Positions 44,633 through 63,620 of a stretch of DNA of 64,000 nucleotides are shown one piece after another (the first letter of the stretch is position 1; each line of letters begins with the position of its first letter). Source of the DNA: Clavelina lepadiformis (lineage: Eukaryota > Chordata > Ascidiacea > Aplousobranchia > Clavelinidae). Both the position numbers and the translations under genes were made by a program. The stretch covers positions 15,936,501-16,000,500 of the forward strand of contig NC_135247.1 of the NCBI RefSeq assembly GCF_947623445.1, read 5' to 3'. Below the pieces are notes generated by a model. That model was given only the letters and a program-made list of their open reading frames with translations, made no database searches and was not told where the DNA came from.

Positions 44633-44714
44633 CGTTGTCGGCAGGATTCGAACCTACGCGGGCTGGGCCCAACAGATTTCGAGTCTGTCGCCTTAACCAC
44701 TCGGCCACGACAAC
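44633..44714 (-). tRNA. tRNA-Ser(CGA) (unit A)
   Basis: GTTGTCG/CGACAAC acceptor stem is fully paired with discriminator G. D arm GCCGAGTGGTTAAGGC; anticodon stem ACAGA/TCTGT with loop CTCGAAA (anticodon CGA, reads UCG); variable arm GGGC-CCA-GCCC; T arm GTAGG-TTCGAAT-CCTGC. A TTTT terminator follows about 13 bases after the 3' end. All signals of a functional Pol III gene are present. Confidence 0.93.
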
Positions 44715-44791
44715 TGTGATTAATGCATAGATGAAATAGTTAAAATGGCACATTTCCGAATATCCATATGAAATTGCAAAAGTAATATCTG

Positions 44792-44873
44792 CATTGTCGG
44801 CAGGATTCGAACCTACGCGGGCAGGGCCCAACAGATTTAGAGTCTGTCGCCTTAACCACTCGGCCACGACAAC
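44792..44873 (-). tRNA. Candidate amber suppressor tRNA-Ser(CUA) (unit A)
   Basis: Matches the CGA gene except at a few sites. The 7-nt anticodon loop between intact ACAGA/TCTGT stems reads CTCTAAA, so positions 34-36 are CUA, which pairs with the stop codon UAG. Serine identity features (long variable arm GGGC-CCT-GCCC, G73) are retained. The acceptor stem is paired with a G1-U72 wobble. A TTTT terminator lies about 13 bases downstream. A one-base change from CGA (G35 to U) explains its origin. Confidence 0.9.
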
Positions 44874-44950
44874 TGTGCTTAATGCATAGATGAAATAGAT
44901 AAAATCGCACTTTTCCGAATATCCATATGAAATTGCAAAAGTAATATCGG

Positions 44951-45032
44951 CGTTGTCGGCAAGATTCGAACCTACGCGGGCATAGCCTAACAGATTTCAA
45001 GTCTGTCGCCTTAACCACTCGGCCACGACAAC
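44951..45032 (-). tRNA. tRNA-Ser(UGA) (unit A)
   Basis: Anticodon loop CTTGAAA gives UGA (reads UCA). Acceptor stem perfect; T stem has one G-U (CTTGC); the variable arm AGGC-TAT-GCCC is slightly weaker. Proximal TTTT terminator present. Unlike the other eight copies, this one keeps C at loop position 32. Confidence 0.92.
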
Positions 45033-45143
45033 TGTGCTTAATGTGAAATGCAAATAGATAAAATGGCACTTTTCTCGAATCACTAGATAGATTCCACCAT
45101 GTCGGTGTTTCCGGAATCTTCTCCTGACTTTCAAATCTGACAA

Positions 45144-45289
45144 GATGAAAATGTAGCTAGCGTAGTCTAGATGAAAATCAAGCTAGCGTAGTCTAGATGA
45201 AAATCAAACTAGCGTAGTCTAGATGAAAATCAAGCAAGCGTAGTCTAGATGAAAATCAAGCTAGCGTAGTCTAGATGAAAATCAAGCTG
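45144..45289. repeat. 26-bp minisatellite (unit A)
   Basis: Five to six copies of GATGAAAATCAAGCTAGCG followed by TAGTCTA. A similar block with small base differences closes the tRNA run in each unit. Confidence 0.9.
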
Positions 45290-45386
45290 ATTTCGAGAAC
45301 TAGCTACGCCTACGTCTCTGTAGTGTATTAACTATAAGCTAGTTTCAACTAAATTTTAAGTACTAAAGTAAACTTCTGTTATTTGC

Positions 45387-45848
45387 TTAAGGGGTCATGT
45401 CCCAATTCAAAGAGATAGGCTTTTCAATGCAAAGTACATTAAATCAAGAAGCTACCAACGCAAAACTACATCATAAACCTACCCTGAATTTTGGCTTGCA
45501 ACAAGACCTAGGTTATGTCTGTCTACAGTCTTAATTTGGACAAAATCCATGTACAGTACTCAGTTTTCTATAACAATTGCCTAAACTTTACAACAAGTTT
45601 TTAGCTTAACACTTTATGACAAATACTCCAAAAAAACAAAAATTCAAACCCACACAAAATTTACAACTTAGCCTAGACCTGGAACCAGCTGTCGTCAAAG
45701 CAACGACGAACTACTCCACATCGACGTCACATGCGCATTGGACCGGAAAATTTTTACTTTTTTTAATATGACGCATTGAGTGCGACACGGTCACAATCAC
45801 TGTGTTGCCGGCACAAAATTGTCGTTTTATTGGGAAGTGACCCCTTAA
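45387..45848. mobile_element. piggyBac-like MITE (unit B), with pogo excision footprint
   Basis: As in unit A but with five extra bases at 45552-45558 (TACAGTA where other empty copies have a single TA), exactly at the pogo insertion site of units F, G and I. Confidence 0.75.
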
Positions 45849-46537
45849 ACGTGAAGAAATTCATAAATTTTAGTTTTACTTATGACTATATCTATATATA
45901 GATATCTATATATATTATATAAGGTAAGTGATTAGGATTAGGATTAGGTGATTAGTAGGGCAAGTTTTTGCAACTTTTGCAACTTTATTTACAGCTTCCG
46001 ACAGCTTCCTAAATACTCAGGATTTACGTGACCTAGACGTGAGTCTAGCCAGCTGGTGGCCTAGACGTGAGTCTAGCCAGCTGGTGGCCTAGAGTCTCGA
46101 GTCTAGAGTCTGGTGGCCTAGAGTCTAGAGGCTAGAGTCTAGAGTCTGGTAGCCTAGAGTCTAGAGTCTGGTGGCCAGCTGGTGGCCTAGACGTGAGTCT
46201 AGCCAGCTGGTGGCCTAGACGTGAGTCTAGCCAGCTGGTGGCCTAGACGTGAGTCTAGCCAGCTGGTGGCCTAGACGTGAGTCTAGCCAGCTGGTGGCCT
46301 AGACGTGAGTCTAGCCAGCTGGTGGCCTAGCCAGCAATGGTCATCAAACGGTTGTTGGCTCGTCGCTCTGCGGCTCGCTGGTTTGAACCTGCAGCTTGTC
46401 TGTCGACGTTCTCCGGTTTTTCCACTGTGCTATGAGTTCCACCCGGCGGCCCTATGCTTTCTGTGCTTAAAGTTCAATGCAAATAGATAAAATCGCACTT
46501 TTCGCAAATCACTTATGGAAGCGTGATTCCAATTCCG

Positions 46538-46619
46538 CGTTGGCGGCAGGATTCGAACCCAAGCGGGCAGAGCCCAGCAGATTTCTGGTCTGTCGCCTTA
46601 ACCACTCGGCCACGACAAC
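46538..46619 (-). pseudogene. tRNA-Ser(AGA)-type gene, probably decayed (unit B)
   Basis: Same loop (CCAGAAA) and stem mismatches as the unit A copy. Confidence 0.7.
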
Positions 46620-46696
46620 TGTGCTTAATGCATAGATGAAATAGTTAAAATACCACATTTCCGAATATCCATATGAAATTGCAAAAGTAATATCGG

Positions 46697-46778
46697 CGTT
46701 GTCGGCAGGATTCGAACCTACGCGGGCATAGCCTAACAGATTTCAAATCTGTCGCCTTAACCACTCGGCCACGACAAC
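46697..46778 (-). tRNA. tRNA-Ser(UGA), hybrid copy (unit B)
   Basis: The 5' two-thirds match the UGA gene (loop TTTGAAA, variable arm AGGC-TAT-GCCC), but the T stem is CCTGC, as in the CGA gene. This is the crossover product that removed the CGA and CUA genes. Folding is intact. Confidence 0.88.
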
Positions 46779-47132
46779 TGTGCTTAATTTGAAATGCAAA
46801 TAGATAAAATGGCACTTTTCTCGAATCACTAGATAGATTCCACCATGTCGGTGTTTCCGGAATCTTCTCCTGACTTTCAAATCTGACAAGATGAAAATGT
46901 AGCTAGCGTAGTCTAGATGAAAATCAAGCTAGCGTAGTCTAGATGAAAATCAAGCTAGCGTAGTCTAGATGAAAATCAAGCAAGCGTAGTCTAAATGAAA
47001 ATCAAGCTAGCGTAGTCTAAATGAAAATCAAGCTGATTTCGAGACCTAGCTACGCCTACGTCTCTGTAGTGTATTAACTATAAGCTAGTTTCAACTAAAT
47101 TTTAAGTACAAAAGTAAACTTCTGTTATTTGC

Positions 47133-47589
47133 TTAAGGGGTCATGTTCCAATTCAAAGAGATAGGCTTTTCAATGCAAAGTACATTAAATCAAGAAGCTA
47201 CCAACGCAAAACTACATCATAAACCTACCCTGAATTTTGGCTTGCAACAAGACCTAGGTTATGTCTGTCTACAGTCTTAATTTGGACAAAATCCATGTAC
47301 TCAGTTTTCTATAACAATTGCCTAAACTTTACAACAAGTTTTTAGCTTAACACTTTATGACAAATACTCCAAAAAAACAAAAATTCAAACCCACACAAAA
47401 TTTACAACTTAGCCTAGACCTGGAACCAGCTGTCGTCAAAGCAACGACGAACTACTCCACATCGACGTCACATGCGCATTGGACCGGAAAATTTTTACTT
47501 TTTTTAATATGACGCATTGAGTGCGACACGGTCACAATCACTGTGTTGCCGGCACAAAATTGTCGTTTTATTGGGAAGTGACCCCTTAA
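47133..47589. mobile_element. piggyBac-like MITE (unit C)
   Basis: Empty copy (no pogo insertion, single TA at the site). Confidence 0.75.
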
Positions 47590-48284
47590 ACGTGAAGAAA
47601 TTCATAAATTTTAGTTTTACTTATGACTATATCTATATATAGATATCTATATATATTATATAAGGTAAGTGATTAGGATTAGGTGATTAGTAGGGCAAGT
47701 TTTTGCAACTTTATTTACAGCTTCCGGCAGCTTGCTAAATACTCAGGATTTACGTGACCTAGACGTGAGTCTAGCCAGCTGGTGGCCTAGACGTGAGTCT
47801 AGCCAGCTGGTGGCCTAGAGTCTAGAGTCTAGTATCTGGTGGCCTAGAGTCTAGAGTCTAGAGTCTGGTGGCCTAGAGTCTAGAGTCTGGTGGCCAGCTG
47901 GTGGCCTAGACGTGAGTCTAGCCAGCTGGTGGCCTAAACGTGAGGCTAGCCAGCTGGTGACCTAGACGTGAGGCTAGCCAGCTGGTGGCCTAGACGTGAG
48001 TCTAGCCAGCTGGTGGCCTAGACGTGAGTCTAGCCAGCTGGTGGCCTAGACGTGAGTCTAGCCAGCTGGTGGCCTAGCCAGCAATGGTTATCAAACGGTT
48101 GTTGGCTCGTCGCTCTGCGGCTCGCTGGTTTGAACCTGCAGCTTGTCTGTCGACGTTCTCCGGTTTTTCCACTGTGCTATGAGTTCCACCCGGCGGCCCT
48201 ATGCTTTCTGTGCTTAACGTTCAATGCAAATAGATAAAATCGCACTTTTCGCAAATCACTTATGGAAGCGTGATTCCAATTCCG

Positions 48285-48366
48285 CGTTGGCGGCAGGATT
48301 CGAACCTAAGCGGGCAGAGCCCAGCAGATTTCTGGTCTGTCGCCTTAACCACTCGGCCACGACAAC
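48285..48366 (-). pseudogene. tRNA-Ser(AGA)-type gene, probably decayed (unit C)
   Basis: As unit A, but the T stem is TTAGG instead of TTGGG, a variant shared with units E and H. Confidence 0.7.
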
Positions 48367-48443
48367 TGTGCTTAATGCATAGATGAAATAGTTAAAATAC
48401 CACATTTCCGAATATCCATATGAAATTGCAAAAGTAATATCGG

Positions 48444-48525
48444 CGTTGTCGGCAGGATTCGAACCTACGCGGGCTGGGCCCAACAGATTTCGAGTCTGTC
48501 GCCTTAACCACTCGGCCACGACAAC
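48444..48525 (-). tRNA. tRNA-Ser(CGA) (unit C)
   Basis: Identical to the unit A CGA gene as far as I can read; TTTT terminator present. Confidence 0.93.
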
Positions 48526-48602
48526 TGTGATTAATGCATAGATGAAATAGTTAAAATGGCACATTTCCGAATATCCATATGAAATTGCAAAAGTAATATC
48601 TG

Positions 48603-48684
48603 CATTGTCGGCAGGATTCGAACCTACGCGGGCAGGGCCCAACAGATTTAGAGTCTGTCGCCTTAACCACTCGGCCACGACAAC
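48603..48684 (-). tRNA. Candidate amber suppressor tRNA-Ser(CUA) (unit C)
   Basis: Loop CTCTAAA; same body as the unit A copy, with fully paired variable arm. Confidence 0.9.
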
Positions 48685-48761
48685 TGTGCTTAATGCATAG
48701 ATGAAATAGATAAAATCGCACTTTTCCGAATATCCATATGAGATTGCAAAAGTAATATCGG

Positions 48762-48843
48762 CGTTGTCGGCAAGATTCGAACCTACGCGGGCATAGCCTA
48801 ACAGATTTCAAATCTGTCGCCTTAACCACTCGGCCACGACAAC
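48762..48843 (-). tRNA. tRNA-Ser(UGA) (unit C)
   Basis: Loop TTTGAAA (U32 variant), anticodon UGA. The spacer downstream has one base change (GAGATTGC) shared with unit E. Confidence 0.9.
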
Positions 48844-49197
48844 TGTGCTTAATTTGAAATGCAAATAGATAAAATGGCACTTTTCTCGAATCACTAGATA
48901 GATTCCACCATGTCGGTGTTTCCGGAATCTTCTCCTGACTTTCAAATCTGACAAGATGAAAATGTAGCTAGCGTAGTCTAGATGAAAATCAAGCTAGCGT
49001 AGTCTAGATGAAAATCAAGCTAGCGTAGTCTAGATGAAAATCAAGCAAGCGTAGTCTAAATGAAAATCAAGCTAGCGTAGTCTAAATGAAAATCAAGCTG
49101 ATTTCGAGACCTAGCTACGCCTACGTCTCTGTAGTGTATTAACTATAAGCTAGTTTCAACTAAATTTTAAGTACAAAAGTAAACTTCTGTTATTTGC

Positions 49198-49654
49198 TTA
49201 AGGGGTCATGTTCCAATTCAAAGAGATAGGCTTTTCAATGCAAAGTACATTAAATCAAGAAGCTACCAACGCAAAACTACATCATAAACCTACCCTGAAT
49301 TTTGGCTTGCAACAAGACCTAGGTTATGTCTGTCTACAGTCTTAATTTGGACAAAATCCATGTACTCAGTTTTCTATAACAATTGCCTAAACTTTACAAC
49401 AAGTTTTTAGCTTAACACTTTATGACAAATACTCCAAAAAAACAAAAATTCAAACCCACACAAAATTTACAACTTAGCCTAGACCTGGAACCAGCTGTCG
49501 TCAAAGCAACGACGAACTACTCCACATCGACGTCACATGCGCATTGGACCGGAAAATTTTTACTTTTTTTAATATGACGCATTGAGTGCGACACGGTCAC
49601 AATCACTGTGTTGCCGGCACAAAATTGTCGTTTTATTGGGAAGTGACCCCTTAA
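49198..49654. mobile_element. piggyBac-like MITE (unit D)
   Basis: Empty copy. Confidence 0.75.
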
Positions 49655-50371
49655 ACGTGAAGAAATTCATAAATTTTAGTTTTACTTATGACTATATCTA
49701 TATATAGATATCTATATATATTATATAAGGTAAGTGATTAGGATTAGGATTAGGTGATTAGTAGGGCAAGTTTTTGCAACTTTTGCAACTTTATTTACAG
49801 CTTCCGACAGCTTCCTAAATACTCAGGATTTACGTGACCTAGACGTGAGTCTAGCCAGCTGGTGGCCTAGACGTGAGTCTAGCCAGCTGGTGGCCTAGAG
49901 TCTCGAGTCTAGAGTCTGGTGGCCTAGAGTCTAGAGGCTAGAGTCTAGAGTCTGGTGGCCTAGAGTCTAGAGTCTGGTGGCCAGCTGGTGGCCTAGACGT
50001 GAGTCTAGCCAGCTGGTGGCCTACACGTGAGTCTAGCCAGCTGGTGGCCTAGACGTGAGTCTAGCCAGCTGGTGGCCTAGACGTGAGTCTAGCCAGCTGG
50101 TGGCCTAGACGTGAGTCTAGCCAGCTGGTGGCCTAGACGTGAGTCTAGCCAGCTGGTGGCCTAGCCAGCAATGGTCATCAAACGGTTGTTGGCTCGTCGC
50201 TCTGCGGCTCGCTGGTTTGAACCTGCAGCTTGTCTGTCGACGTTCTCCGGTTTTTCCACTGTGCTATGAGTTCCACCCGGCGGCCCTATGCTTTCTGTGC
50301 TTAAAGTTCAATGCAAATAGATAAAATCGCACTTTTCGCAAATCACTTATGGAAGCGTGATTCCAATTCCG

Positions 50372-50453
50372 CGTTGGCGGCAGGATTCGAACCCAAGCGG
50401 GCAGAGCCCAGCAGATTTCTGGTCTGTCGCCTTAACCACTCGGCCACGACAAC
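50372..50453 (-). pseudogene. tRNA-Ser(AGA)-type gene, probably decayed (unit D)
   Basis: As unit A. Confidence 0.7.
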
Positions 50454-50530
50454 TGTGCTTAATGCATAGATGAAATAGTTAAAATACCACATTTCCGAAT
50501 ATCCATATGAAATTGCAAAAGTAATATCGG

Positions 50531-50612
50531 CGTTGTCGGCAGGATTCGAACCTACGCGGGCATAGCCTAACAGATTTCAAATCTGTCGCCTTAACCACTC
50601 GGCCACGACAAC
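50531..50612 (-). tRNA. tRNA-Ser(UGA), hybrid copy (unit D)
   Basis: Same CGA/UGA hybrid as in unit B. Confidence 0.88.
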
Positions 50613-50966
50613 TGTGCTTAATTTGAAATGCAAATAGATAAAATGGCACTTTTCTCGAATCACTAGATAGATTCCACCATGTCGGTGTTTCCGGAATCTT
50701 CTCCTGACTTTCAAATCTGACAAGATGAAAATGTAGCTAGCGTAGTCTAGATGAAAATCAAGCTAGCGTAGTCTAGATGAAAATCAAGCTAGCGTAGTCT
50801 AGATGAAAATCAAGCAAGCGTAGTCTAAATGAAAATCAAGCTAGCGTAGTCTAAATGAAAATCAAGCTGATTTCGAGACCTAGCTACGCCTACGTCTCTG
50901 TAGTGTATTAACTATAAGCTAGTTTCAACTAAATTTTAAGTACAAAAGTAAACTTCTGTTATTTGC

Positions 50967-51423
50967 TTAAGGGGTCATGTTCCAATTCAAAGAGATAGGC
51001 TTTTCAATGCAAAGTACATTAAATCAAGAAGCTACCAACGCAAAACTACATCATAAACCTACCCTGAATTTTGGCTTGCAACAAGACCTAGGTTATGTCT
51101 GTCTACAGTCTTAATTTGGACAAAATCCATGTACTCAGTTTTCTATAACAATTGCCTAAACTTTACAACAAGTTTTTAGCTTAACACTTTATGACAAATA
51201 CTCCAAAAAAACAAAAATTCAAACCCACACAAAATTTACAACTTAGCCTAGACCTGGAACCAGCTGTCGTCAAAGCAACGACGAACTACTCCACATCGAC
51301 GTCACATGCGCATTGGACCGGAAAATTTTTACTTTTTTTAATATGACGCATTGAGTGCGACACGGTCACAATCACTGTGTTGCCGGCACAAAATTGTCGT
51401 TTTATTGGGAAGTGACCCCTTAA
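50967..51423. mobile_element. piggyBac-like MITE (unit E)
   Basis: Empty copy. Confidence 0.75.
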
Positions 51424-52174
51424 ACGTGAAGAAATTCATAAATTTTAGTTTTACTTATGACTATATCTATATATAGATATCTATATATATTATATAAGGT
51501 AAGTGATTAGGATTAGGTGATTAGTAGGGCAAGTTTTTGCAACTTTATTTACAGCTTCCGGCAGCTTGCTAAATACTCAGGATTTACGTGACCTAGACGT
51601 GAGTCTAGCCAGCTGGTGGCCTAGACGTGAGTCTAGCCAGCTGGTGGCCTAGAGTCTAGAGTCTAGTATCTGGTGGCCTAGAGTCTAGAGTCTAGAGTCT
51701 GGTGGCCTAGAGTCTAGAGTCTGGTGGCCAGCTGGTGGCCTAGACGTGAGTCTAGCCAGCTGGTGGCCTAAACGTGAGTCTAGCCAGCTGGTGGCCTAGA
51801 CGTGAGTCTAGCCAGCTGGTGGCCTAGACGTGAGGCTAGCCAGCTGGTGACCTAGACGTGAGGCTAGCCAGCTGGTGGCCTAGACGTGAGTCTAGCCAGC
51901 TGGTGGCCTAGACGTGAGTCTAGCTAGCTGGTGCCCTAGACGTGAGTCTAGCCAGCTGGTGGCCTAGCCAGCAATGGTTATCAAACGGTTGTTGGCTCGT
52001 CGCTCTGCGGCTCGCTGGTTTGAACCTGCAGCTTGTCTGTCGACGTTCTCCGGTTTTTCCACTGTGCTATGAGTTCCACCCGGCGGCCCTATGCTTTCTG
52101 TGCTTAACGTTCAATGCAAATAGATAAAATCGCACTTTTCGCAAATCACTTATGGAAGCGTGATTCCAATTCCG

Positions 52175-52256
52175 CGTTGGCGGCAGGATTCGAACCTAAG
52201 CGGGCAGAGCCCAGCAGATTTCTGGTCTGTCGCCTTAACCACTCGGCCACGACAAC
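52175..52256 (-). pseudogene. tRNA-Ser(AGA)-type gene, probably decayed (unit E)
   Basis: TTAGG T-stem variant, as unit C. Confidence 0.7.
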
Positions 52257-52333
52257 TGTGCTTAATGCATAGATGAAATAGTTAAAATACCACATTTCCG
52301 AATATCCATATGAAATTGCAAAAGTAATATCGG

Positions 52334-52415
52334 CGTTGTCGGCAGGATTCGAACCTACGCGGGCTGGGCCCAACAGATTTCGAGTCTGTCGCCTTAACCA
52401 CTCGGCCACGACAAC
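52334..52415 (-). tRNA. tRNA-Ser(CGA) (unit E)
   Basis: As unit A; loop CTCGAAA. Confidence 0.93.
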
Positions 52416-52492
52416 TGTGATTAATGCATAGATGAAATAGTTAAAATGGCACATTTCCGAATATCCATATGAAATTGCAAAAGTAATATCTG

Positions 52493-52574
52493 CATTGTCG
52501 GCAGGATTCGAACCTACGCGGGCAGGGCCCAACAGATTTAGAGTCTGTCGCCTTAACCACTCGGCCACGACAAC
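52493..52574 (-). tRNA. Candidate amber suppressor tRNA-Ser(CUA) (unit E)
   Basis: Loop CTCTAAA, paired variable arm, G1-U72. Confidence 0.9.
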
Positions 52575-52651
52575 TGTGCTTAATGCATAGATGAAATAGA
52601 TAAAATCGCACTTTTCCGAATATCCATATGAGATTGCAAAAGTAATATCGG

Positions 52652-52733
52652 CGTTGTCGGCAAGATTCGAACCTACGCGGGCATAGCCTAACAGATTTCA
52701 AATCTGTCGCCTTAACCACTCGGCCACGACAAC
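52652..52733 (-). tRNA. tRNA-Ser(UGA) (unit E)
   Basis: Loop TTTGAAA; as unit C. Confidence 0.9.
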
Positions 52734-53087
52734 TGTGCTTAATTTGAAATGCAAATAGATAAAATGGCACTTTTCTCGAATCACTAGATAGATTCCACCA
52801 TGTCGGTGTTTCCGGAATCTTCTCCTGACTTTCAAATCTGACAAGATGAAAATGTAGCTAGCGTAGTCTAGATGAAAATCAAGCTAGCGTAGTCTAGATG
52901 AAAATCAAGCTAGCGTAGTCTAGATGAAAATCAAGCAAGCGTAGTCTAGATGAAAATCAAGCTAGCGTAGTCTAAATGAAAATCAAGCTGATTTCGAGAC
53001 CTAGCTACGCCTACGTCTCTGTAGTGTATTAACTATAAGCTAGTTTCAACTAAATTTTAAGTACAAAAGTAAACTTCTGTTATTTGC

Positions 53088-54459
53088 TTAAGGGGTCATG
53101 TTCCAATTCAAAGAGATAGGCTTTTCAATGCAAAGTACATTAAATCAAGAAGCTACCAACGCAAAACTACATCATAAACCTACCCTGAATTTTGGCTTGC
53201 AACAAGACCTAGGTTATGTCTGTCTACAGTCTTAATTTGGACAAAATCCATGTACAGTGGGACCTCGTTAATCCGGACCCCGAACAACCGGAATCCCCGC
53301 TATCCGACACAAAACTGCCGGGAACGGATTTCTTCCTATGCATTTTACCCCTTTAATCCGGAAACCCCGCTGTCCGACTCCGACACAAAAGTTTTGGAAC
53401 AAATGTGCTAAATCAATAGCAATAAAATCCGATAAACCGGATTATTAACAGTTAAGCGAAAATGATTCACGATTGTCCTAATACACTATGTACACTGGGT
53501 AGTTAGTTGACGAAACAATAGCCGATCATCTACGCATAATAACGTTGCGGTCTTTATTGATTCAAAAGTACAGTATTGCGCTTTGTAAAAAATTTTAGCC
53601 GCACAGCTTTTTAGTCATACAGTACTATGAAATACTGTACAGTATTTTAGAAACGAAAAAATAAATTGTTCATCAACAGTAACAAACAACACTTCCGCGG
53701 TCGCAAAAAAATACGTACAGTACATCGGTTGAGTGCGGCAATCTATTGAAGACATACTGCTGCAACTCAATCGTGCTATCAGCTTAATATATCGCATTGC
53801 GCAAAGATTGGAAACAGGTCAAAGAAAGTTCAAGACTGCTGGTCCCGCCGGAATGCTTCGCCATGCAAGAGCGGTTGTCAAACCGATTTGCGGCCGAATG
53901 TTCGTCACTTGGAGAGCATTCGTCTTTAATACAGTGGTTCTGGGGTTCGACACTGGGTCGGATCATACAAAAAATATAATTTTATTTTAGTTGCTGTCCA
54001 GCCAGAAAGTCGGTACTTAGAATTGGAGTAAGGTGCACACTGCGTTTTGAACACGGTGCTGCATTTGCAAGATTGATTGATTTTTTACTTTCCGATAATC
54101 CGGATACCCCGCTAAACCGACATTTTTTGACGAAACGAAGTGGTCCGGATTAACGAGGTCTCACTGTACTCAGTTTTCTATAACAATTGCCTAAACTTTA
54201 CAACAAGTTTTTAGCTTAACACTTTATGACAAATACTCCAAAAAAACAAAAATTCAAACCCACACAAAATTTACAACTTAGCCTAGACCTGGAACCAGCT
54301 GTCGTCAAAGCAACGACGAACTACTCCACATCGACGTCACATGCGCATTGGACCGGAAAATTTTTACTTTTTTTAATATGACGAATTGAGTGCGACACGG
54401 TCACAATCACTGTGTTACCCGGCACAAAATTGTCGTTTTATTGGGAAGTGACCCCTTAA
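53088..54459. mobile_element. piggyBac-like MITE (unit F), split by pogo-like element
   Basis: The two halves flank 53255-54166; TTAA at both outer edges is intact. Confidence 0.75.
53255..54166. mobile_element. pogo/Tigger-like element, 912 bp (unit F)
   Basis: Perfect-looking terminal inverted repeats CAGTGGGACCTCGTTAATCC versus CAGTGAGACCTCGTTAATCC (inverted), with a TA target duplication, as in the pogo branch of Tc1/mariner. The subterminal regions repeat CCCCGCT(A/G)TCCGAC words. Short open frames inside (60-85 codons) show no transposase signature that I recognise, so it is non-autonomous. Confidence 0.85.
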
Positions 54460-55176
54460 ACGTGAAGAAATTCATAAATTTTAGTTTTACTTATGACTAT
54501 ATCTATATATAGATATCTATATATATTATATAAGGTAAGTGATTAGGATTAGGATTAGGTGATTAGTAGGGCAAGTTTTTGCAACTTTTGCAACTTTATT
54601 TACAGCTTCCGACAGCTTCCTAAATACTCAGGATTTACGTGACCTAGACGTGAGTCTAGCCAGCTGGTGGCCTAGACGTGAGTCTAGCCAGCTGGTGGCC
54701 TAGAGTCTAGAGTCTAGAGTCTGGTGGCCTAGAGTCTAGAGGCTAGAGTCTAGAGTCTGGTGGCCTAGAGTCTAGAGTCTGGTGGCCAGCTGGTGGCCTA
54801 GACGTGAGTCTAGCCAGCTGGTGGCCTAAACGTGAGTCTAGCCAGCTGGTGGCCTAGACGTGAGTCTAGCCAGCTGGTGGCCTAGACGTGAGTCTAGCCA
54901 GCTGGTGGCCTAGACGTGAGTCTAGCCAGCTGGTGGCCTAGACGTGAGTCTAGCCAGCTGGTGGCCTAGCCAGCAATGGTCATCAAACGGTTGTTGGCTC
55001 GTCGCTCTGCGGCTCGCTGGTTTGAACCTGCAGCTTGTCTGTCGACGTTCTCCGGTTTTTCCACTGTGCTATGAGTTCCACCCGGCGGCCCTATGCTTTC
55101 TGTGCTTAATGTTCAATGCAAATAGATAAAATCGCACTTTTCGCAAATCACTTATGGAAGCGTGATTCCAATTCCG

Positions 55177-55258
55177 CGTTGGCGGCAGGATTCGAACCCA
55201 AGCGGGCAGAGCCCAGCAGATTTCTGGTCTGTCGCCTTAACCACTCGGCCACGACAAC
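55177..55258 (-). pseudogene. tRNA-Ser(AGA)-type gene, probably decayed (unit F)
   Basis: As unit A. Confidence 0.7.
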
Positions 55259-55335
55259 TGTGCTTAATGCATAGATGAAATAGTTAAAATACCACATTTC
55301 CGAATATCCATATGAAATTGCAAAAGTAATATCGG

Positions 55336-55417
55336 CGTTGTCGGCAGGATTCGAACCTACGCGGGCTGGGCCCAACAGATTTCGAGTCTGTCGCCTTAAC
55401 CACTCGGCCACGACAAC
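55336..55417 (-). tRNA. tRNA-Ser(CGA) (unit F)
   Basis: As unit A. Confidence 0.93.
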
Positions 55418-55494
55418 TGTGATTAATGCATAGATGAAATAGTTAAAATGGCACATTTCCGAATATCCATATGAAATTGCAAAAGTAATATCTG

Positions 55495-55576
55495 CATTGT
55501 CGGCAGGATTCGAACCTACGCGGGCAGGGCTCAACAGATTTAGAGTCTGTCGCCTTAACCACTCGGCCACGACAAC
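55495..55576 (-). tRNA. Candidate amber suppressor tRNA-Ser(CUA) (unit F)
   Basis: Loop CTCTAAA. The variable arm reads GAGC-CCT-GCCC, one mispair relative to units A, C, E and I; shared with G and H. Confidence 0.87.
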
Positions 55577-55653
55577 TGTGCTTAATGCATAGATGAAATA
55601 GATAAAATCGCACTTTTCCGAATATCCATATGAAATTGCAAAAGTAATATCGG

Positions 55654-55735
55654 CGTTGTCGGCAAGATTCGAACCTACGCGGGCATAGCCTAACAGATTT
55701 CAAATCTGTCGCCTTAACCACTCGGCCACGACAAC
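55654..55735 (-). tRNA. tRNA-Ser(UGA) (unit F)
   Basis: Loop TTTGAAA. Confidence 0.9.
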
Positions 55736-56089
55736 TGTGCTTAATTTGAAATGCAAATAGATAAAATGGCACTTTTCTCGAATCACTAGATAGATTCCAC
55801 CATGTCGGTGTTTCCGGAATCTTCTCCTGACTTTCAAATCTGACAAGATGAAAATGTAGCTAGCGTAGTCTAGATGAAAATCAAGCTAGCGTAGTCTAGA
55901 TGAAAATCAAGCTAGCGTAGTCTAGATGAAAATCAAGCAAGCGTAGTCTAAATGAAAATCAAGCTAGCGTAGTCTAAATGAAAATCAAGCTGATTTCGAG
56001 ACCTAGCTACGCCTACGTCTCTGTAGTGTATTAACTATAAGCTAGTTTCAACTAAATTTTAAGTACAAAAGTAAACTTCTGTTATTTGC

Positions 56090-57461
56090 TTAAGGGGTCA
56101 TGTTCCAATTCAAAGAGATAGGCTTTTCAATGCAAAGTACATTAAATCAAGAAGCTACCAACGCAAAACTACATCATAAACCTACCCTGAATTTTGGCTT
56201 GCAACAAGACCTAGGTTATGTCTGTCTACAGTCTTAATTTGGACAAAATCCATGTACAGTGGGACCTCGTTAATCCGGACCCCGAACAACCGGAATCCCC
56301 GCTATCCGACACAAAACTGCCGGGAACGGATTTCTTCCTATGCATTTTACCCCTTTAATCCGGAAACCCCGCTGTCCGACTCCGACACAAAAGTTTTGGA
56401 ACAAATGTGCTAAATCAATAGCAATAAAATCCGATAAACCGGATTATTAACAGTTAAGCGAAAATGATTCACGATTGTCCTAATACACTATGTACACTGG
56501 GTAGTTAGTTGACGAAACAATAGCCGATCATCTACGCATAATAACGTTGCGGTCTTTATTGATTCAAAAGTACAGTATTGCGCTTTGTAAAAAATTTTAG
56601 CCGCACAGCTTTTTAGTCATACAGTACTATGAAATACTGTACAGTATTTTAGAAACGAAAAAATAAATTGTTCATCAACAGTAACAAACAACACTTCCGC
56701 GGTCGCAAAAAAATACGTACAGTACATCGGTTGAGTGCGGCAATCTATTGAAGACATACTGCTGCAACTCAATCGTGCTATCAGCTTAATATATCGCATT
56801 GCGCAAAGATTGGAAACAGGTCAAAGAAAGTTCAAGACTGCTGGTCCCGCCGGAATGCTTCGCCATGCAAGAGCGGTTGTCAAACCGATTTGCGGCCGAA
56901 TGTTCGTCACTTGGAGAGCATTCGTCTTTAATACAGTGGTTCTGGGGTTCGACACTGGGTCGGATCATACAAAAAATATAATTTTATTTTAGTTGCTGTC
57001 CAGCCAGAAAGTCGGTACTTAGAATTGGAGTAAGGTGCACACTGCGTTTTGAACACGGTGCTGCATTTGCAAGATTGATTGATTTTTTACTTTCCGATAA
57101 TCCGGATACCCCGCTAAACCGACATTTTTTGACGAAACGAAGTGGTCCGGATTAACGAGGTCTCACTGTACTCAGTTTTCTATAACAATTGCCTAAACTT
57201 TACAACAAGTTTTTAGCTTAACACTTTATGACAAATACTCCAAAAAAACAAAAATTCAAACCCACACAAAATTTACAACTTAGCCTAGACCTGGAACCAG
57301 CTGTCGTCAAAGCAACGACGAACTACTCCACATCGACGTCACATGCGCATTGGACCGGAAAATTTTTACTTTTTTTAATATGACGAATTGAGTGCGACAC
57401 GGTCACAATCACTGTGTTGCCCGGCACAAAATTGTCGTTTTATTGGGAAGTGACCCCTTAA
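56090..57461. mobile_element. piggyBac-like MITE (unit G), split by pogo-like element
   Basis: Same structure as unit F. Confidence 0.75.
56257..57168. mobile_element. pogo/Tigger-like element, 912 bp (unit G)
   Basis: Same length, same site and apparently same sequence as the unit F copy, so it was copied with the unit and not inserted separately. Confidence 0.85.
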
Positions 57462-58206
57462 ACGTGAAGAAATTCATAAATTTTAGTTTTACTTATGACT
57501 ATATCTATATATAGATATCTATATATATTATATAAGGTAAGTGATTAGGATTAGGATTAGGTGATTAGTAGGGCAAGTTTTTGCAACTTTTGCAACTTTA
57601 TTTACAGCTTCCGACAGCTTCCTAAATACTCAGGATTTACGTGACCTAGACGTGAGTCTAGCCAGCTGGTGGCCTAGACGTGAGTCTAGCCAGCTGGTGG
57701 CCTAGAGTCTAGAGTCTAGAGTCTGGTGGCCTAGAGTCTAGAGGCTAGAGTCTAGAGTCTGGTGGCCTAGAGTCTAGAGTCTGGTGGCCAGCTGGTGGCC
57801 TAGACGTGAGTCTAGCCAGCTGGTGGCCTAAACGTGAGTCTAGCCAGCTGGTGGCCTAGACGTGAGTCTAGCCAGCTGGTGGCCTAGACGTGAGTCTAGC
57901 CAGCTGGTGGCCTAGACGTGAGTCTAGCCGGCTGGTGGCCTAGACGTGAGTCTAGCCAGCTGGTGGCCTAGACGTGAGTCTAGCCAGCTGGTGGCCTAGC
58001 CAGCAATGGTCATCAAACGGTTGTTGGCTCGTCGCTCTGCGGCTCGCTGGTTTGAACCTGCAGCTTGTCTGTCGACGTTCTCCGGTTTTTCCACTGTGCT
58101 ATGAGTTCCACCCGGCGGCCCTATGCTTTCTGTGCTTAATGTTCAATGCAAATAGATAAAATCGCACTTTTCGCAAATCACTTATGGAAGCGTGATTCCA
58201 ATTCCG

Positions 58207-58288
58207 CGTTGGCGGCAGGATTCGAACCCAAGCGGGCAGAGCCCAGCAGATTTCTGGTCTGTCGCCTTAACCACTCGGCCACGACAAC
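58207..58288 (-). pseudogene. tRNA-Ser(AGA)-type gene, probably decayed (unit G)
   Basis: As unit A. Confidence 0.7.
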
Positions 58289-58365
58289 TGTGCTTAATGC
58301 ATAGATGAAATAGTTAAAATACCACATTTCCGAATATCCATATGAAATTGCAAAAGTAATATCGG

Positions 58366-58447
58366 CGTTGTCGGCAGGATTCGAACCTACGCGGGCTGGG
58401 CCCAACAGATTTCGAGTCTGTCGCCTTAACCACTCGGCCACGACAAC
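58366..58447 (-). tRNA. tRNA-Ser(CGA) (unit G)
   Basis: As unit A. Confidence 0.93.
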
Positions 58448-58524
58448 TGTGATTAATGCATAGATGAAATAGTTAAAATGGCACATTTCCGAATATCCAT
58501 ATGAAATTGCAAAAGTAATATCTG

Positions 58525-58606
58525 CATTGTCGGCAGGATTCGAACCTACGCGGGCAGGGCTCAACAGATTTAGAGTCTGTCGCCTTAACCACTCGGCCAC
58601 GACAAC
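58525..58606 (-). tRNA. Candidate amber suppressor tRNA-Ser(CUA) (unit G)
   Basis: Loop CTCTAAA; GAGC variable-arm variant. Confidence 0.87.
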
Positions 58607-58683
58607 TGTGCTTAATGCATAGATGAAATAGATAAAATCGCACTTTTCCGAATATCCATATGAAATTGCAAAAGTAATATCGG

Positions 58684-58765
58684 CGTTGTCGGCAAGATTC
58701 GAACCTACGCGGGCATAGCCTAACAGATTTCAAATCTGTCGCCTTAACCACTCGGCCACGACAAC
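58684..58765 (-). tRNA. tRNA-Ser(UGA) (unit G)
   Basis: Loop TTTGAAA. Confidence 0.9.
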
Positions 58766-59119
58766 TGTGCTTAATTTGAAATGCAAATAGATAAAATGGC
58801 ACTTTTCTCGAATCACTAGATAGATTCCACCATGTCGGTGTTTCCGGAATCTTCTCCTGACTTTCAAATCTGACAAGATGAAAATGTAGCTAGCGTAGTC
58901 TAGATGAAAATCAAGCTAGCGTAGTCTAGATGAAAATCAAGCTAGCGTAGTCTAGATGAAAATCAAGCAAGCGTAGTCTAAATGAAAATCAAGCTAGCGT
59001 AGTCTAAATGAAAATCAAGCTGATTTCGAGACCTAGCTACGCCTACGTCTCTGTAGTGTATTAACTATAAGCTAGTTTCAACTAAATTTTAGGTACAAAA
59101 GTAAACTTCTGTTATTTGC

Positions 59120-59576
59120 TTAAGGGGTCATGTTCCAATTCAAAGAGATAGGCTTTTCAATGCAAAGTACATTAAATCAAGAAGCTACCAACGCAAAACT
59201 ACATCATAAACCTACCCTGAATTTTGGCTTGCAACAAGACCTAGGTTATGTCTGTCTACAGTCTTAATTTGGACAAAATCCATGTACTCAGTTTTCTATA
59301 ACAATTGCCTAAACTTTACAACAAGTTTTTAGCTTAACACTTTATGACAAATACTCCAAAAAAACAAAAATTCAAACCCACACAAAATTTACAACTTAGC
59401 CTAGACCTGGAACCAGCTGTCGTCAAAGCAACGACGAACTACTCCACATCGACGTCACATGCGCATTGGACCGGAAAATTTTTACTTTTTTTAATATGAC
59501 GCATTGAGTGCGACACGGTCACAATCACTGTGTTGCCGGCACAAAATTGTCGTTTTATTGGGAAGTGACCCCTTAA
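59120..59576. mobile_element. piggyBac-like MITE (unit H)
   Basis: Empty copy lying between pogo-bearing units G and I. Confidence 0.75.
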
Positions 59577-60327
59577 ACGTGAAGAAATTCATAAATTTTA
59601 GTTTTACTTATGAATATATCTATATATAGATATCTATATATATTATATAAGGTAAGTGATTAGGATTAGGTGATTAGTAGGGCAAGTTTTTGCAACTTTA
59701 TTTACAGCTTCCGGCAGCTTGCTAAATACTCAGGATTTACGTGACCTAGACGTGAGTCTAGCCAGCTGGTGGCCTAGACGTGAGTCTAGCCAGCTGGTGG
59801 CCTAGAGTCTAGAGTCTAGTATCTGGTGGCCTAGAGTCTAGAGTCTAGAGTCTGGTGGCCTAGAGTCTAGAGTCTGGTGGCCAGCTGGTGGCCTAGACGT
59901 GAGTCTAGCCAGCTGGTGGCCTAAACGTGAGTCTAGCCAGCTGGTGGCCTAGACGTGAGTCTAGCCAGCTGGTGGCCTAGACGTGAGGCTAGCCAGCTGG
60001 TGACCTAGACGTGAGGCTAGCCAGCTGGTGGCCTAGACGTGAGTCTAGCCAGCTGGTGGCCTAGACGTGAGTCTAGCCAGCTGGTGGCCTAGACGTGAGT
60101 CTAGCCAGCTGGTGGCCTAGCCAGCAATGGTTATCAAACGGTTGTTGGCTCGTCGCTCTGCGGCTCGCTGGTTTGAACCTGCAGCTTGTCTGTCGTCGTT
60201 CTCCGGTTTTTCCACTGTGCTATGAGTTCCACCCGGCGGCCCTATGCTTTCTGTGCTTAACGTTCAATGCAAATAGATAAAATCGCACTTTTCGCAAATC
60301 ACTTATGGAAGCGTGATTCCAATTCCG

Positions 60328-60409
60328 CGTTGGCGGCAGGATTTGAACCTAAGCGGGCAGAGCCCAGCAGATTTCTGGTCTGTCGCCTTAACCACTCGGC
60401 CACGACAAC
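60328..60409 (-). pseudogene. tRNA-Ser(AGA)-type gene, more decayed (unit H)
   Basis: As unit C, plus a change in the T loop (TTCAAAT for TTCGAAT) that damages the B box. Confidence 0.75.
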
Positions 60410-60486
60410 TGTGATTAATGCATAGATGAAATAGTTAAAATGGCACATTTCCGAATATCCATATGAAATTGCAAAAGTAATATCTG

Positions 60487-60568
60487 CATTGTCGGCAGGA
60501 TTCGAACCTACGCGGGCAGGGCTCAACAGATTTAGAGTCTGTCGCCTTAACCACTCGGCCACGACAAC
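60487..60568 (-). tRNA. Candidate amber suppressor tRNA-Ser(CUA) (unit H)
   Basis: Loop CTCTAAA; GAGC variable-arm variant. Here it directly follows the AGA-type gene because the CGA gene has been lost. Confidence 0.87.
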
Positions 60569-60645
60569 TGTGCTTAATGCATAGATGAAATAGATAAAAT
60601 CGCACTTTTCCGAATATCCATATGAAATTGCAAAAGTAATATCGG

Positions 60646-60727
60646 CGTTGTCGGCAAGATTCGAACCTACGCGGGCATAGCCTAACAGATTTCAAATCTG
60701 TCGCCTTAACCACTCGGCCACGACAAC
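60646..60727 (-). tRNA. tRNA-Ser(UGA) (unit H)
   Basis: Loop TTTGAAA. Confidence 0.9.
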
Positions 60728-61081
60728 TGTGCTTAATTTGAAATGCAAATAGATAAAATGGCACTTTTCTCGAATCACTAGATAGATTCCACCATGTCGG
60801 TGTTTCCGGAATCTTCTCCTGACTTTCAAATCTGACAAGATGAAAATGTAGCTAGCGTAGTCTAGATGAAAATCAAGCTAGCGTAGTCTAGATGAAAATC
60901 AAGCTAGCGTAGTCTAGATGAAAATCAAGCAAGCGTAGTCTAAATGAAAATCAAGCTAGCGTAGTCTAAATGAAAATCAAGCTGATTTCGAGACCTAGCT
61001 ACGCCTACGTCTCTGTAGTGTATTAACTATAAGCTAGTTTCAACTAAATTTTAAGTACAAAAGTAAACTTCTGTTATTTGC

Positions 61082-62454
61082 TTAAGGGGTCATGTTCCAA
61101 TTCAAAGAGATAGGCTTTTCAATGCAAAGTACATTAAATCAAGAAGCTACCAACGCAAAACTACATCATAAACCTACCCTGAATTTTGGCTTGCAACAAG
61201 ACCTAGGTTATGTCTGTCTACAGTCTTAATTTGGACAAAATCCATGTACAGTGGGACCTCGTTAATCCGGACCCCGAACAACCGGAATCCCCGCTATCCG
61301 ACACAAAACTGCCGGGAACGGATTTCTTCCTATGCATTTTACCCCTTTAATCCGGAAACCCCGCTGTCCGACTCCGACACAAAAGTTTTGGAACAAATGT
61401 GCTAAATCAATAGCAATAAAATCCGATAAACCGGATTATTAACAGTTAAGCGAAAATGATTCACGATTGTCCTAATACACTATGTACACTGGGTAGTTAG
61501 TTGACGAAACAATAGCCGATCATCTACGCATAATAACGTTGCGGTCTTTATTGATTCAAAAGTACAGTATTGCGCTTTGTAAAAAATTTTAGCCGCACAG
61601 CTTTTTAGTCATACAGTACTATGAAATACTGTACAGTATTTTAGAAACGAAAAAATAAATTGTTCATCAACAGTAACAAACAACACTTCCGCGGTCGCAA
61701 AAAAATACGTACAGTACATCGGTTGAGTGCGGCAATCTATTGAAGACATACTGCTGCAACTCAATCGTGCTATCAGCTTAATATATCGCATTGCGCAAAG
61801 ATTGGAAACAGGTCAAAGAAAGTTCAAGACTGCTGGTCCCGCCGGAATGCTTCGCCATGCAAGAGCGGTTGTCAAACCGATTTGCGGCCGAATGTTCGTC
61901 ACTTGGAGAGCATTCGTCTTTAATACAGTGGTTCTGGGGTTCGACACTGGGTCGGATCATACAAAAAATATAATTTTATTTTAGTTGCTGTCCAGCCAGA
62001 AAGTCGGTACTTAGAATTGGAGTAAGGTGCACACTGCGTTTTGAACACGGTGCTGCATTTGCAAGATTGATTGATTTTTTACTTTCCGATAATCCGGATA
62101 CCCCGCTAAACCGACATTTTTTGACGAAACGAAGTGGTCCGGATTAACGAGGTCTCACTGTACTCAGTTTTCTATAACAATTGCCTAAACTTTACAACAA
62201 GTTTTTAGCTTAACACTTTATGACAAATACTCCAAAAAAACAAAAATTCAAACCCACACAAAATTTACAACTTAGCCTAGACCTGGAACCAGCTGTCGTC
62301 AAAGCAACGACGAACTACTCCACATCGACGTCACATGCGCATTGGACCGGAAAATTTTTACTTTTTTTTAATATGACGAATTGAGTGCGACACGGTCACA
62401 ATCACTGTGTTGCCCGGCACAAAATTGTCGTTTTATTGGGAAGTGACCCCTTAA
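61082..62454. mobile_element. piggyBac-like MITE (unit I), split by pogo-like element
   Basis: As unit F, with one extra T in a T-run. Confidence 0.75.
61249..62160. mobile_element. pogo/Tigger-like element, 912 bp (unit I)
   Basis: Third copy at the same TA. Confidence 0.85.
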
Positions 62455-63143
62455 ACGTGAAGAAATTCATAAATTTTAGTTTTACTTATGACTATATCTA
62501 TATATAGATATCTATATATATTATATAAGGTAAGTGATTAGGATTAGGATTAGGTGATTAGTAGGGCAAGTTTTTGCAACTTTTGCAACTTTATTTACAG
62601 CTTCCGACAGCTTCCTAAATACTCAGGATTTACGTGACCTAGACGTGAGTCTAGCCAGCTGGTGGCCTAGACGTGAGTCTAGCCAGCTGGTGGCCTAGAG
62701 TCTAGAGTCTAGAGTCTGGTGGCCTAGAGTCTAGAGGCTAGAGTCTAGAGTCTGGTGGCCTAGAGTCTAGAGTCTGGTGGCCAGCTGGTGGCCTAGACGT
62801 GAGTCTAGCCAGCTGGTGGCCTAAACGTGAGTCTAGCCAGCTGGTGGCCTAGACGTGAGTCTAGCCAGCTGGTGGCCTAGACGTGAGTCTAGCCAGCTGG
62901 TGGCCTAGACGTGAGTCTAGCCAGCTGGTGGCCTAGCCAGCAATGGTCATCAAACGGTTGTTGGCTCGTCGCTCTGCGGCTCGCTGGTTTGAACCTGCAG
63001 CTTGTCTGTCGACGTTCTCCGGTTTTTCCACTGTGCTATGAGTTCCACCCGGCGGCCCTATGCTTTCTGTGCTTAATGTTCAATGCAAATAGATAAAATC
63101 GCACTTTTCGCAAATCACTTATGGAAGCGTGATTCCAATTCCG

Positions 63144-63225
63144 CGTTGGCGGCAGGATTCGAACCCAAGCGGGCAGAGCCCAGCAGATTTCTGGTCTGTC
63201 GCCTTAACCACTCGGCCACGACAAC
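63144..63225 (-). pseudogene. tRNA-Ser(AGA)-type gene, probably decayed (unit I)
   Basis: As unit A. Confidence 0.7.
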
Positions 63226-63302
63226 TGTGCTTAATGCATAGATGAAATAGTTAAAATACCACATTTCCGAATATCCATATGAAATTGCAAAAGTAATATC
63301 GG

Positions 63303-63384
63303 CGTTGTCGGCAGGATTCGAACCTACGCGGGCTGGGCCCAACAGATTTCGAGTCTGTCGCCTTAACCACTCGGCCACGACAAC
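63303..63384 (-). tRNA. tRNA-Ser(CGA) (unit I)
   Basis: As unit A. Confidence 0.93.
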
Positions 63385-63461
63385 TGTGATTAATGCATAG
63401 ATGAAATAGTTAAAATGGCACATTTCCGAATATCCATATGAAATTGCAAAAGTAATATCTG

Positions 63462-63543
63462 CATTGTCGGCAGGATTCGAACCTACGCGGGCAGGGCCCA
63501 ACAGATTTAGAGTCTGTCGCCTTAACCACTCGGCCACGACAAC
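63462..63543 (-). tRNA. Candidate amber suppressor tRNA-Ser(CUA) (unit I)
   Basis: Loop CTCTAAA, fully paired variable arm as in A, C and E, unlike its array neighbours F-H. Confidence 0.9.
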
Positions 63544-63620
63544 TGTGCTTAATGCATAGATGAAATAGATAAAATCGCACTTTTCCGAATATCCATATGA
63601 AATTGCAAAAGTAATATCGG

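What the first reader, a model, noticed from the sequence alone, without database searches (positions are those of the whole stretch)
44792..63543. Seven tandem copies of an apparently intact amber-suppressor tRNA-Ser(CUA)
At 44792, 48603, 52493, 55495, 58525, 60487 and 63462 the anticodon loop reads CTCTAAA between perfect stems, so the anticodon is CUA, which pairs with UAG. Serine identity elements, A/B boxes and T-run terminators are kept, and every copy that survives has the same anticodon. A nuclear animal genome carrying an amplified, structurally sound nonsense-suppressor tRNA family would be remarkable. It could allow programmed UAG read-through, or the genes may be silent or unable to be charged.
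Basis: partly seen in the sequence, partly recalled or inferred. Interest (0 to 1): 0.93.

Follow-up and report, generated by a model that had tools for sequence, protein, structure and literature searches.

The report
Remolded amber-anticodon serine tRNA array
A sea-squirt chromosome carries nine near-identical, well-formed serine tRNA genes whose anticodon was mutated to match the stop codon UAG; they look like a recent accident copied along with a tandem repeat rather than a change of genetic code, but they could be tested as a natural suppressor.

Summary
Seven tRNA-Ser genes with anticodon CUA lie on the minus strand at the stated places; two more lie just outside: nine in one tandem block. 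The genes are not decayed (61.2 bits; CGA sisters 62.9), with Pol III boxes, a T4 terminator, G73 and a long variable arm, though all have G1:U72 and 3 of 9 a variable-arm mismatch. A chromosome 7 array has AGA-CGA-CGA-TGA where this one has AGA-CGA-CUA-TGA, so CUA is a remolded CGA gene (G35 to U), multiplied with its repeat unit. tRNA bodies vary no less than spacers, and the AGA gene is broken in 11 of 11 units: no sign of selection. UAG still ends genes (12 of 76), including prenylated GTPases; eRF1 is canonical. The genome holds other remolded Ser tRNAs (ochre, Leu, Cys, Gly anticodons). Best reading: passive amplification of a remolded, possibly chargeable suppressor, not programmed read-through. 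Transcription, charging and suppression were not testable here.

The parts
44792..44873 (-). tRNA-Ser with CUA anticodon, unit 1, G46 form
   Evidence: MFE is the full cloverleaf with variable arm
48603..48684 (-). tRNA-Ser(CUA), unit 3, G46 form
52493..52574 (-). tRNA-Ser(CUA), unit 5, G46 form
55495..55576 (-). tRNA-Ser(CUA), unit 6, G46A variable-arm mismatch
   Evidence: MFE is not the cloverleaf
58525..58606 (-). tRNA-Ser(CUA), unit 7, G46A form
60487..60568 (-). tRNA-Ser(CUA), unit 8 (this unit lacks the CGA gene), G46A form
63462..63543 (-). tRNA-Ser(CUA), unit 9, G46 form
44633..44714 (-). tRNA-Ser(CGA) sister gene of unit 1; same type at 48444, 52334, 55336, 58366, 63303
   Evidence: 62.9 bits each; identical to the CGA gene in the chromosome 7 cassettes compared
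44474..44555 (-). tRNA-Ser(AGA) sister gene, degenerate: U33 to C and U5:C68 mismatch in 11 of 11 units of the block
   Evidence: 38.2-41.3 bits over the 9 window copies
44951..45032 (-). tRNA-Ser(TGA) sister gene
   Evidence: 58.9-63.7 bits over the 9 window copies
44778..44781 (-). TTTT run (Pol III terminator-like), 10 bases between it and the end of the first CUA gene
44400..64000 (-). tandem block of about 1.7-3.0 kb units carrying the cassette TGA-CUA-CGA-AGA or a deleted form; 9 units in the window, 2 more beyond

Best explanation
These are remolded tRNA-Ser(CGA) genes. In a four-gene cassette (AGA-CGA-CGA-TGA) that is redundant with several hundred other Ser tRNA genes, one CGA gene took a G35 to T change, giving anticodon CUA, and a C72 to T change. 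The 2-3 kb unit then multiplied, probably by unequal exchange, and carried the CUA gene to nine near-identical copies (parent slot and unit identity are shown; the route of copying is inferred). Because seryl-tRNA synthetase reads G73 and the long variable arm and not the anticodon, the RNA, if made, would probably carry serine and could insert it at UAG at low efficiency in competition with eRF1 (inferred). It has no demonstrated selected role: neither the sampled genes nor the termination factor shows adaptation to it.
For: Slot homology: 8 of 10 C7 units read AGA-CGA-CGA-TGA and 8 of 11 C8 units AGA-CGA-CTA-TGA; one C8 unit lacks CGA and two lack both CGA and CTA. The CUA body differs from the C7 slot gene at fixed positions 35 and 81 (standard 72) only, plus polymorphic 46. 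In the 8 + 8 units compared there are 8 variable sites in 328 tRNA positions and 4 in 372 spacer positions, Fisher p 0.24, so no excess conservation of the tRNAs. The AGA sister is broken in 11 of 11 units. Two C8 units are 99.9% identical over 3,031 bp. Redundancy: 300 CGA, 46 TGA, 36 AGA and 9 CTA in the 21 stretches scanned. The same family has been remolded elsewhere: CTA x1 and ACA x8, CAA x4, TTA x3, TAA and ACC. UAG ends 12 of 76 gene ends against a 22% share of stop triplets in stretches taken as mostly noncoding, p 0.21. eRF1 keeps TASNIKS and YLCDNKF (meaning of the motifs recalled). Papers: recent alloacceptor remoldings in primates and flies are judged mostly non-functional (PMC4981973, passages); [quoted passage not shown]
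Against: The CUA genes score nearly as well as their CGA sisters (61.2 against 62.9 bits) while the AGA gene beside them has collapsed, which could hint at retention. Among 47 tRNA matches in L011, L017 and L026, only 7 score 61.2 or more. TAG share is below background, though not significantly (15.8% against 22%). The body/spacer comparison rests on 12 sites and has little power; position 35 was what drew attention to the block, and without it the body count is 7 of 327; homogenisation by gene conversion could mask selection.
Confidence: 0.72

Rival explanations
1. Active natural amber suppressor: the genes are transcribed, charged with serine and give measurable but unselected read-through at UAG, tolerated because most stops are UAA or UGA and another stop usually follows.
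For: A and B boxes, T4 terminator, G73, variable arm, U33, A36-A38. An endogenous human tRNA-Leu converted at one locus to CUA suppresses UAG without detected read-through of natural stops or toxicity (PMC12675287, passages). A multicopy ochre suppressor tRNA-Ser worked in transgenic mice (cited in the review PMC8244042, passages).
Against: No expression data; G1:U72; 3 of 9 copies with a variable-arm mismatch; five GTPases with a cysteine in the last four residues end in UAG, where read-through would hide the prenylation site.
Confidence: 0.2
2. Selected, programmed UAG read-through using this tRNA as a dedicated adaptor.
For: Copy number of nine; structural integrity compared with the AGA neighbour.
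Against: UAG usage not different from background (12 of 76), second stop within 5 codons 2 of 12 for TAG against 19 of 64 for the others; no purifying selection visible; two of 11 units lack the gene; block looks recent.
Confidence: 0.03
3. Silent pseudogene array: the block is not transcribed or the transcripts are degraded.
For: AGA member broken in all 11 units; variable-arm mismatch in 3 of 9 copies; most terminal remoldings in primates and flies were judged pseudogenes (PMC4981973, passages).
Against: Promoter boxes, terminator and tRNA score of the CUA, CGA and TGA members look intact.
Confidence: 0.25
4. UAG has been reassigned to serine in this species.
For: Presence of the cognate tRNA only.
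Against: UAG terminates sampled genes; canonical eRF1; in the 16 trypsin exons fetched for an in-frame TAG, the TAG lies just upstream of the conserved exon, as a splice acceptor would; other listed matches with a TAG inside were not fetched.
Confidence: 0.003
5. Sequencing or assembly artefact.
For: Tandem repeats are hard to assemble.
Against: Same base in 9 units that otherwise differ in length and content, published QV 67.4 (PMC10884593, passages); other remolded loci exist independently.
Confidence: 0.02

Closest known systems
Alloacceptor anticodon shifts / tRNA remolding in nuclear genomes (PMC3923123 section 7 and passages; PMC4981973 passages)
   Same: A tRNA gene keeps its body but takes a base change in the anticodon; numbers of shifts rise with tRNA gene number, and middle-base changes are the commonest alloacceptor type.
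   Different: Here the new anticodon matches a stop codon and the gene has been multiplied to nine copies in one tandem block.
Predicted suppressor tRNAs in other animal genomes (for example three flatworm genomes, PMC2770079, passages)
   Same: tRNA genes with CTA or TTA anticodons called by software in an animal nuclear genome; 14 papers hold the phrase 'possible suppressor tRNA' (listing only).
   Different: In the passages seen they are counts in a figure; here parent gene, array and copy number are worked out.
Nematode nev-tRNAs (PMC4300185, abstract and section 7)
   Same: Variable-arm tRNAs with a non-cognate anticodon; charged by body identity in vitro; mature in cells; no detectable mistranslation.
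   Different: nev-tRNAs are charged with leucine, have Gly or Ile anticodons and are conserved in nematodes; these are serine-type, stop-reading, and no conservation is shown.
Engineered suppressor tRNAs from endogenous genes (PERT, PMC12675287, passages)
   Same: Changing the anticodon of a genomic Ser or Leu tRNA to CUA can give a suppressor; the paper also states that natural suppressor anticodon variants occur and are tolerated in humans.
   Different: Here the change is natural, in a tunicate, and in nine copies.
tRNA-Sec (recalled: first described as an opal suppressor seryl-tRNA)
   Same: A serine-charged tRNA with a stop anticodon; this genome has one at C6:239 kb (L143, 75.3 bits).
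   Different: The CUA genes are near-identical to tRNA-Ser(CGA).

Membership tests
Eukaryotic tRNA gene | cloverleaf scoring above the family cut-off | tested here: met
   61.2 bits against 29 for 7 of 7 window copies
Eukaryotic tRNA gene | A box, B box (consensus recalled) and T-run terminator | tested here: met
   TGGCCGAGTGG, GGTTCGAATCC, TTTT 10 bases downstream
Eukaryotic tRNA gene | transcription and maturation | not testable with these tools
   no RNA data held
Serine tRNA | G73 and long variable arm | tested here: met
   9 of 9 keep G73; 6 of 9 keep a 4-bp variable-arm stem, 3 of 9 have a mismatch in it (one of each kind folded)
Serine tRNA | charging by SerRS | not testable with these tools
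   inferred from family knowledge
Amber suppressor tRNA | CUA anticodon with U33 and purine 37 | tested here: met
   CTCTAAA loop in 9 of 9
Amber suppressor tRNA | suppresses UAG in cells | not testable with these tools
   no functional data
Remolded (anticodon-shifted) tRNA | body belongs to a different acceptor family than the anticodon, with an identifiable parent | tested here: met
   parent slot CGA in the C7 cassette
UAG-reassigned genetic code | UAG absent as a terminator in ordinary genes | tested here: not met
   12 of 76 counted ends are TAG
UAG-reassigned genetic code | altered eRF1 stop-recognition motifs | tested here: not met
   TASNIKS and YLCDNKF present in L030
Programmed read-through system | UAG avoidance or back-up stop enrichment | tested here: not met
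   TAG 12 of 76 against 0.22, p 0.21; second stop within 5 codons 2 of 12 against 19 of 64, p 0.49; small sample
nev-tRNA | leucine-type body in nematodes (A73 for leucine recalled) | tested here: not met
   serine-type body, G73

The most novel reading that the evidence does not exclude
A fixed, multi-copy nuclear amber-suppressor tRNA family that is expressed and charged with serine, so that this animal lives with low-level serine insertion at UAG, part of a wider burst in which redundant tRNA arrays in one genome have produced amber, ochre and opal anticodons.
Probability: 0.2. Interest if true: 0.88.

Novelty: new member of a known kind. Interest (0 to 1): 0.5.

Why it matters
Suppressor tRNAs are built deliberately for therapy, and how much of one an animal tolerates is an open question. 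A wild animal with nine intact-looking amber-anticodon serine tRNA genes, plus ochre ones, is a ready-made test of whether natural stop codons withstand genomic suppressors, and of how redundant tRNA arrays generate decoding novelty. Even if silent, it shows that tandem amplification can multiply a stop-reading anticodon.

Tried and rejected
Rejected: UAG reassignment (UAG ends genes; canonical eRF1). In-frame TAGs reported inside trypsin exons by the family search looked at first like suppressed codons; in the 16 such exons that I fetched the TAG lies just upstream of the conserved exon, as a splice acceptor would; further listed matches with a TAG inside were not fetched. A looser amber pattern gave 216 hits against 17 control hits, of which 100 were listed; most listed ones carry the string of Arg(TCT) genes that ARAGORN names elsewhere, a few look like Thr(AGT) (recalled), read out of register, so I replaced it by the tighter pattern. 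Numbers typed by hand were replaced by the computed ones; one search is not used. One search read a gene in the wrong frame and is not used. Pfam on 8 window ORFs told nothing about the block. Paper searches listed no title about amber-anticodon tRNA genes in tunicates; the lists of 54 and 68 were capped (12 of 1,482 and 12 of 71), so this is no proof of absence from print.

The stop-codon count: the ends were picked by hand from the listed matches, not at random; 98 of 99 fetched ends examined (L127 dropped as a repeat of L049), 76 counted, 22 left out because no in-frame stop lay within the family's limit. The stricter rule was set. Of the 12 TAG ends two are weak (L117, L118). The sample is four protein families with related trypsin copies, so the ends are not independent. 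Cassette alignment used 8 of 11 C8 units and 8 of 10 C7 units (the standard four-gene ones). In one search, 72 of 391 Ser-type tRNAs failed the strict anchor and were left out of the allele table.
Full report
Observation. ARAGORN finds 31 tRNA genes in the window, all Ser-bodied and on the minus strand: AGA 9, CGA 6, TGA 9 and CTA 7. Two more CTA copies lie in the next 9.6 kb (L009) and ARAGORN finds no tRNA in the 10 kb after that (L010). A tRNA-shaped amber pattern (intronless genes with a standard B box only) hits 15 places in the 209-Mb genome against 5 for the control: the nine of this block, one Ser tRNA at C4:38.4 kb, one Ser(AGA) gene read out of register and four that look like chance.

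Where it is. The nine contigs seen are 28.78, 26.53, 25.73, 25.07, 24.62, 20.77, 20.45, 19.51 and 15.73 Mb; the published chromosomes of Clavelina lepadiformis are 28.79, 26.54, 25.74, 25.07, 24.62, 20.77, 20.45, 19.51 and 15.73 Mb (PMC10884593, passages). The totals differ slightly (209.06 Mb in 95 contigs here, 210.1 Mb in 102 scaffolds there). The window is thus most likely chromosome 8 of that tunicate: an identification by size, not by name.

Anatomy. The CUA gene reads acceptor GTTGTCG with CGACAAT, D stem GCC/GGC, anticodon stem ACAGA with loop CTCTAAA and TCTGT, variable stem GGGC/GCCC, T stem GTAGG/CCTGC, and G73. U33, A37 and A38 are kept. All nine have G1:U72; 20 Ser genes with ordinary anticodons in the allele table have it too (8 AGA, 5 CGA, 7 TGA), so it may be tolerated. 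Three of nine have G46A, a mismatch in the variable-arm stem. Predicted folding gives the full cloverleaf for the G46 form but not for the A46 form; it also fails to give it for the TGA sister, so folding alone is a weak test. A T4 run begins 11 bases past the gene.

Origin. A block on C7 repeats a 2,309-bp unit; 8 of its 10 units carry AGA-CGA-CGA-TGA. Of 11 C8 units, 8 carry AGA-CGA-CTA-TGA, one AGA-CTA-TGA and two AGA-TGA. In 8 + 8 aligned cassettes the CTA gene differs from the C7 slot gene by fixed changes at 35 and 81 (standard 72) and a polymorphic 46; the neighbouring CGA gene is identical. Variable sites are 8 of 328 in tRNA bodies and 4 of 372 in spacers, Fisher p 0.24; 7 of 327 if position 35 is set aside. 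The longest alignment outside the cassette that I take as unique differs by 5 of 478 bases. Under purifying selection bodies should vary less than spacers; they do not, though power is low. The AGA gene has lost U33 and has a U5:C68 mismatch in 11 of 11 C8 units. Two C8 units are 99.9% identical over 3,031 bp. So the shared anticodon is explained by recent copying.

A wider pattern. In the 21 stretches scanned the Ser genes are CGA 300, TGA 46, AGA 36 and CTA 9. Ser-bodied genes with other anticodons occur at several places: CAA x4 (three on C6, one on C2); ACA x8 and CTA x1 in a 16-gene array at C4:37-40 kb whose 16 Rfam matches score 31.0-59.6 bits, the CTA gene 54.8; TTA (ochre) x3 at C2:55 kb, C2:70 kb and C8:104 kb with 63.2, 61.1 and 56.6 bits; TAA at C7:17.72 Mb (one fetched; three more by pattern only) and ACC x1 at C8:104 kb. 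The ochre pattern as a whole was not enriched (23 hits against 21 control hits); these genes stand on the ARAGORN and Rfam calls. The opal pattern gave 31 hits against 9: two identical genes at C7:1.73 Mb (55.8 bits), one at C5:16.80 Mb (64.5 bits) and the normal tRNA-Sec at C6:239 kb were confirmed among the hits fetched; that the first two look Arg-like and the third Gly-like is recalled, not tested. Of these, the C8 amber block stands out by copy number and by a terminator close by; the two C2 ochre genes have no TTTT within 40 bases and the C4 CTA gene has it 44 bases on, while the C8:104 kb ochre gene has one 15 bases past the called end. Remolding of redundant Ser genes is thus repeated in this genome, which favours drift in surplus copies over a special amber function.

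Is UAG affected? Of 98 gene ends examined in four families, 76 could be called: TAA 43, TGA 21, TAG 12; by a stricter, later rule 33, 16 and 10. The TAG share of stop triplets is 0.22 in two stretches taken as mostly noncoding, so neither 12 of 76 (p 0.21) nor 10 of 59 (p 0.43) is significantly low, though both are below it. Five GTPases with a cysteine in the last four residues end in TAG (L091, L098, L108, L109, L122); read-through would bury the prenylation site. A second stop within five codons follows 2 of 12 TAG and 19 of 64 other stops (p 0.49). eRF1 is an open frame with TASNIKS and YLCDNKF and ends in TAA, as does the pelota-like gene L029 (both names recalled from motif and family).

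How it most likely works. Shown: gene integrity by sequence, parent, amplification, unchanged use of UAG as a stop. Inferred: that Pol III would transcribe it, that SerRS would charge it (Ser and Leu tRNAs are said not to be recognised by the anticodon loop in PMC12675287, passages) and that competition with eRF1 would keep suppression low. The nearest precedent, nematode nev-tRNAs, are mature and chargeable yet cause no detectable mistranslation (PMC4300185, abstract and section 7). In primates and flies most recent alloacceptor remoldings were judged pseudogenes (PMC4981973, passages). Predicted suppressor tRNAs have been listed in other animal genomes (PMC2770079, passages). I therefore put most weight on a passive, at most weakly active suppressor, and keep a real chance (about 0.2) that it is expressed and active.

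Noticed in passing
G000 C2:55538, C2:70475, C8:104092 (L131, L132, L133): Three Ser-bodied tRNA genes with ochre anticodon TTA, 63.2, 61.1 and 56.6 bits, near chromosome ends.
   Followed up: partly
G000 C4:36.9-39.7 kb (L031): Decaying array of 16 Ser-bodied tRNA genes, 8 with anticodon ACA (Cys codon) and 1 with CTA.
   Followed up: partly
G000 C6:18.37-18.43 Mb (L017-L022): Very large array of Ser(CGA) tRNA genes on both strands, many at 159-bp spacing: 205 CGA genes by ARAGORN in these six stretches, odd for decoding one codon, UCG; three genes carry CAA instead.
   Followed up: partly
G000 C7:1.73 Mb (L135, L136) and C5:16.80 Mb (L140): tRNA genes with opal anticodon TCA that are not tRNA-Sec by Rfam: two copies at 55.8 bits and one at 64.5 bits.
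   Followed up: partly
G000 C7:3.93-3.99 Mb: Fifteen copies at about 4.13-kb spacing of a tRNA-like stretch with TTCARA; ARAGORN and Rfam call no tRNA in the two copies fetched.
   Followed up: partly
G000 C1:24.98-25.03 Mb: Tandem array of Arg(TCT)-like tRNA strings at about 664-bp spacing, 64 copies in the capped list.
   Followed up: no
window 43957-44266, 45143-45288 and later units: 28-bp (GTGGCCTAGACGTGAGTCTAGCCAGCTG) and 26-bp (AGATGAAAATCAAGCTAGCGTAGTCT) minisatellites recur in the units of the tRNA block.
   Followed up: no
window 24051-24755: ORF with a galactosyltransferase domain (PF01762, 66.8 bits).
   Followed up: no
L030 (C4:6125501): The eRF1-like gene lies in one open frame of 439 codons, so it seems to have no introns in its coding part.
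   Followed up: no
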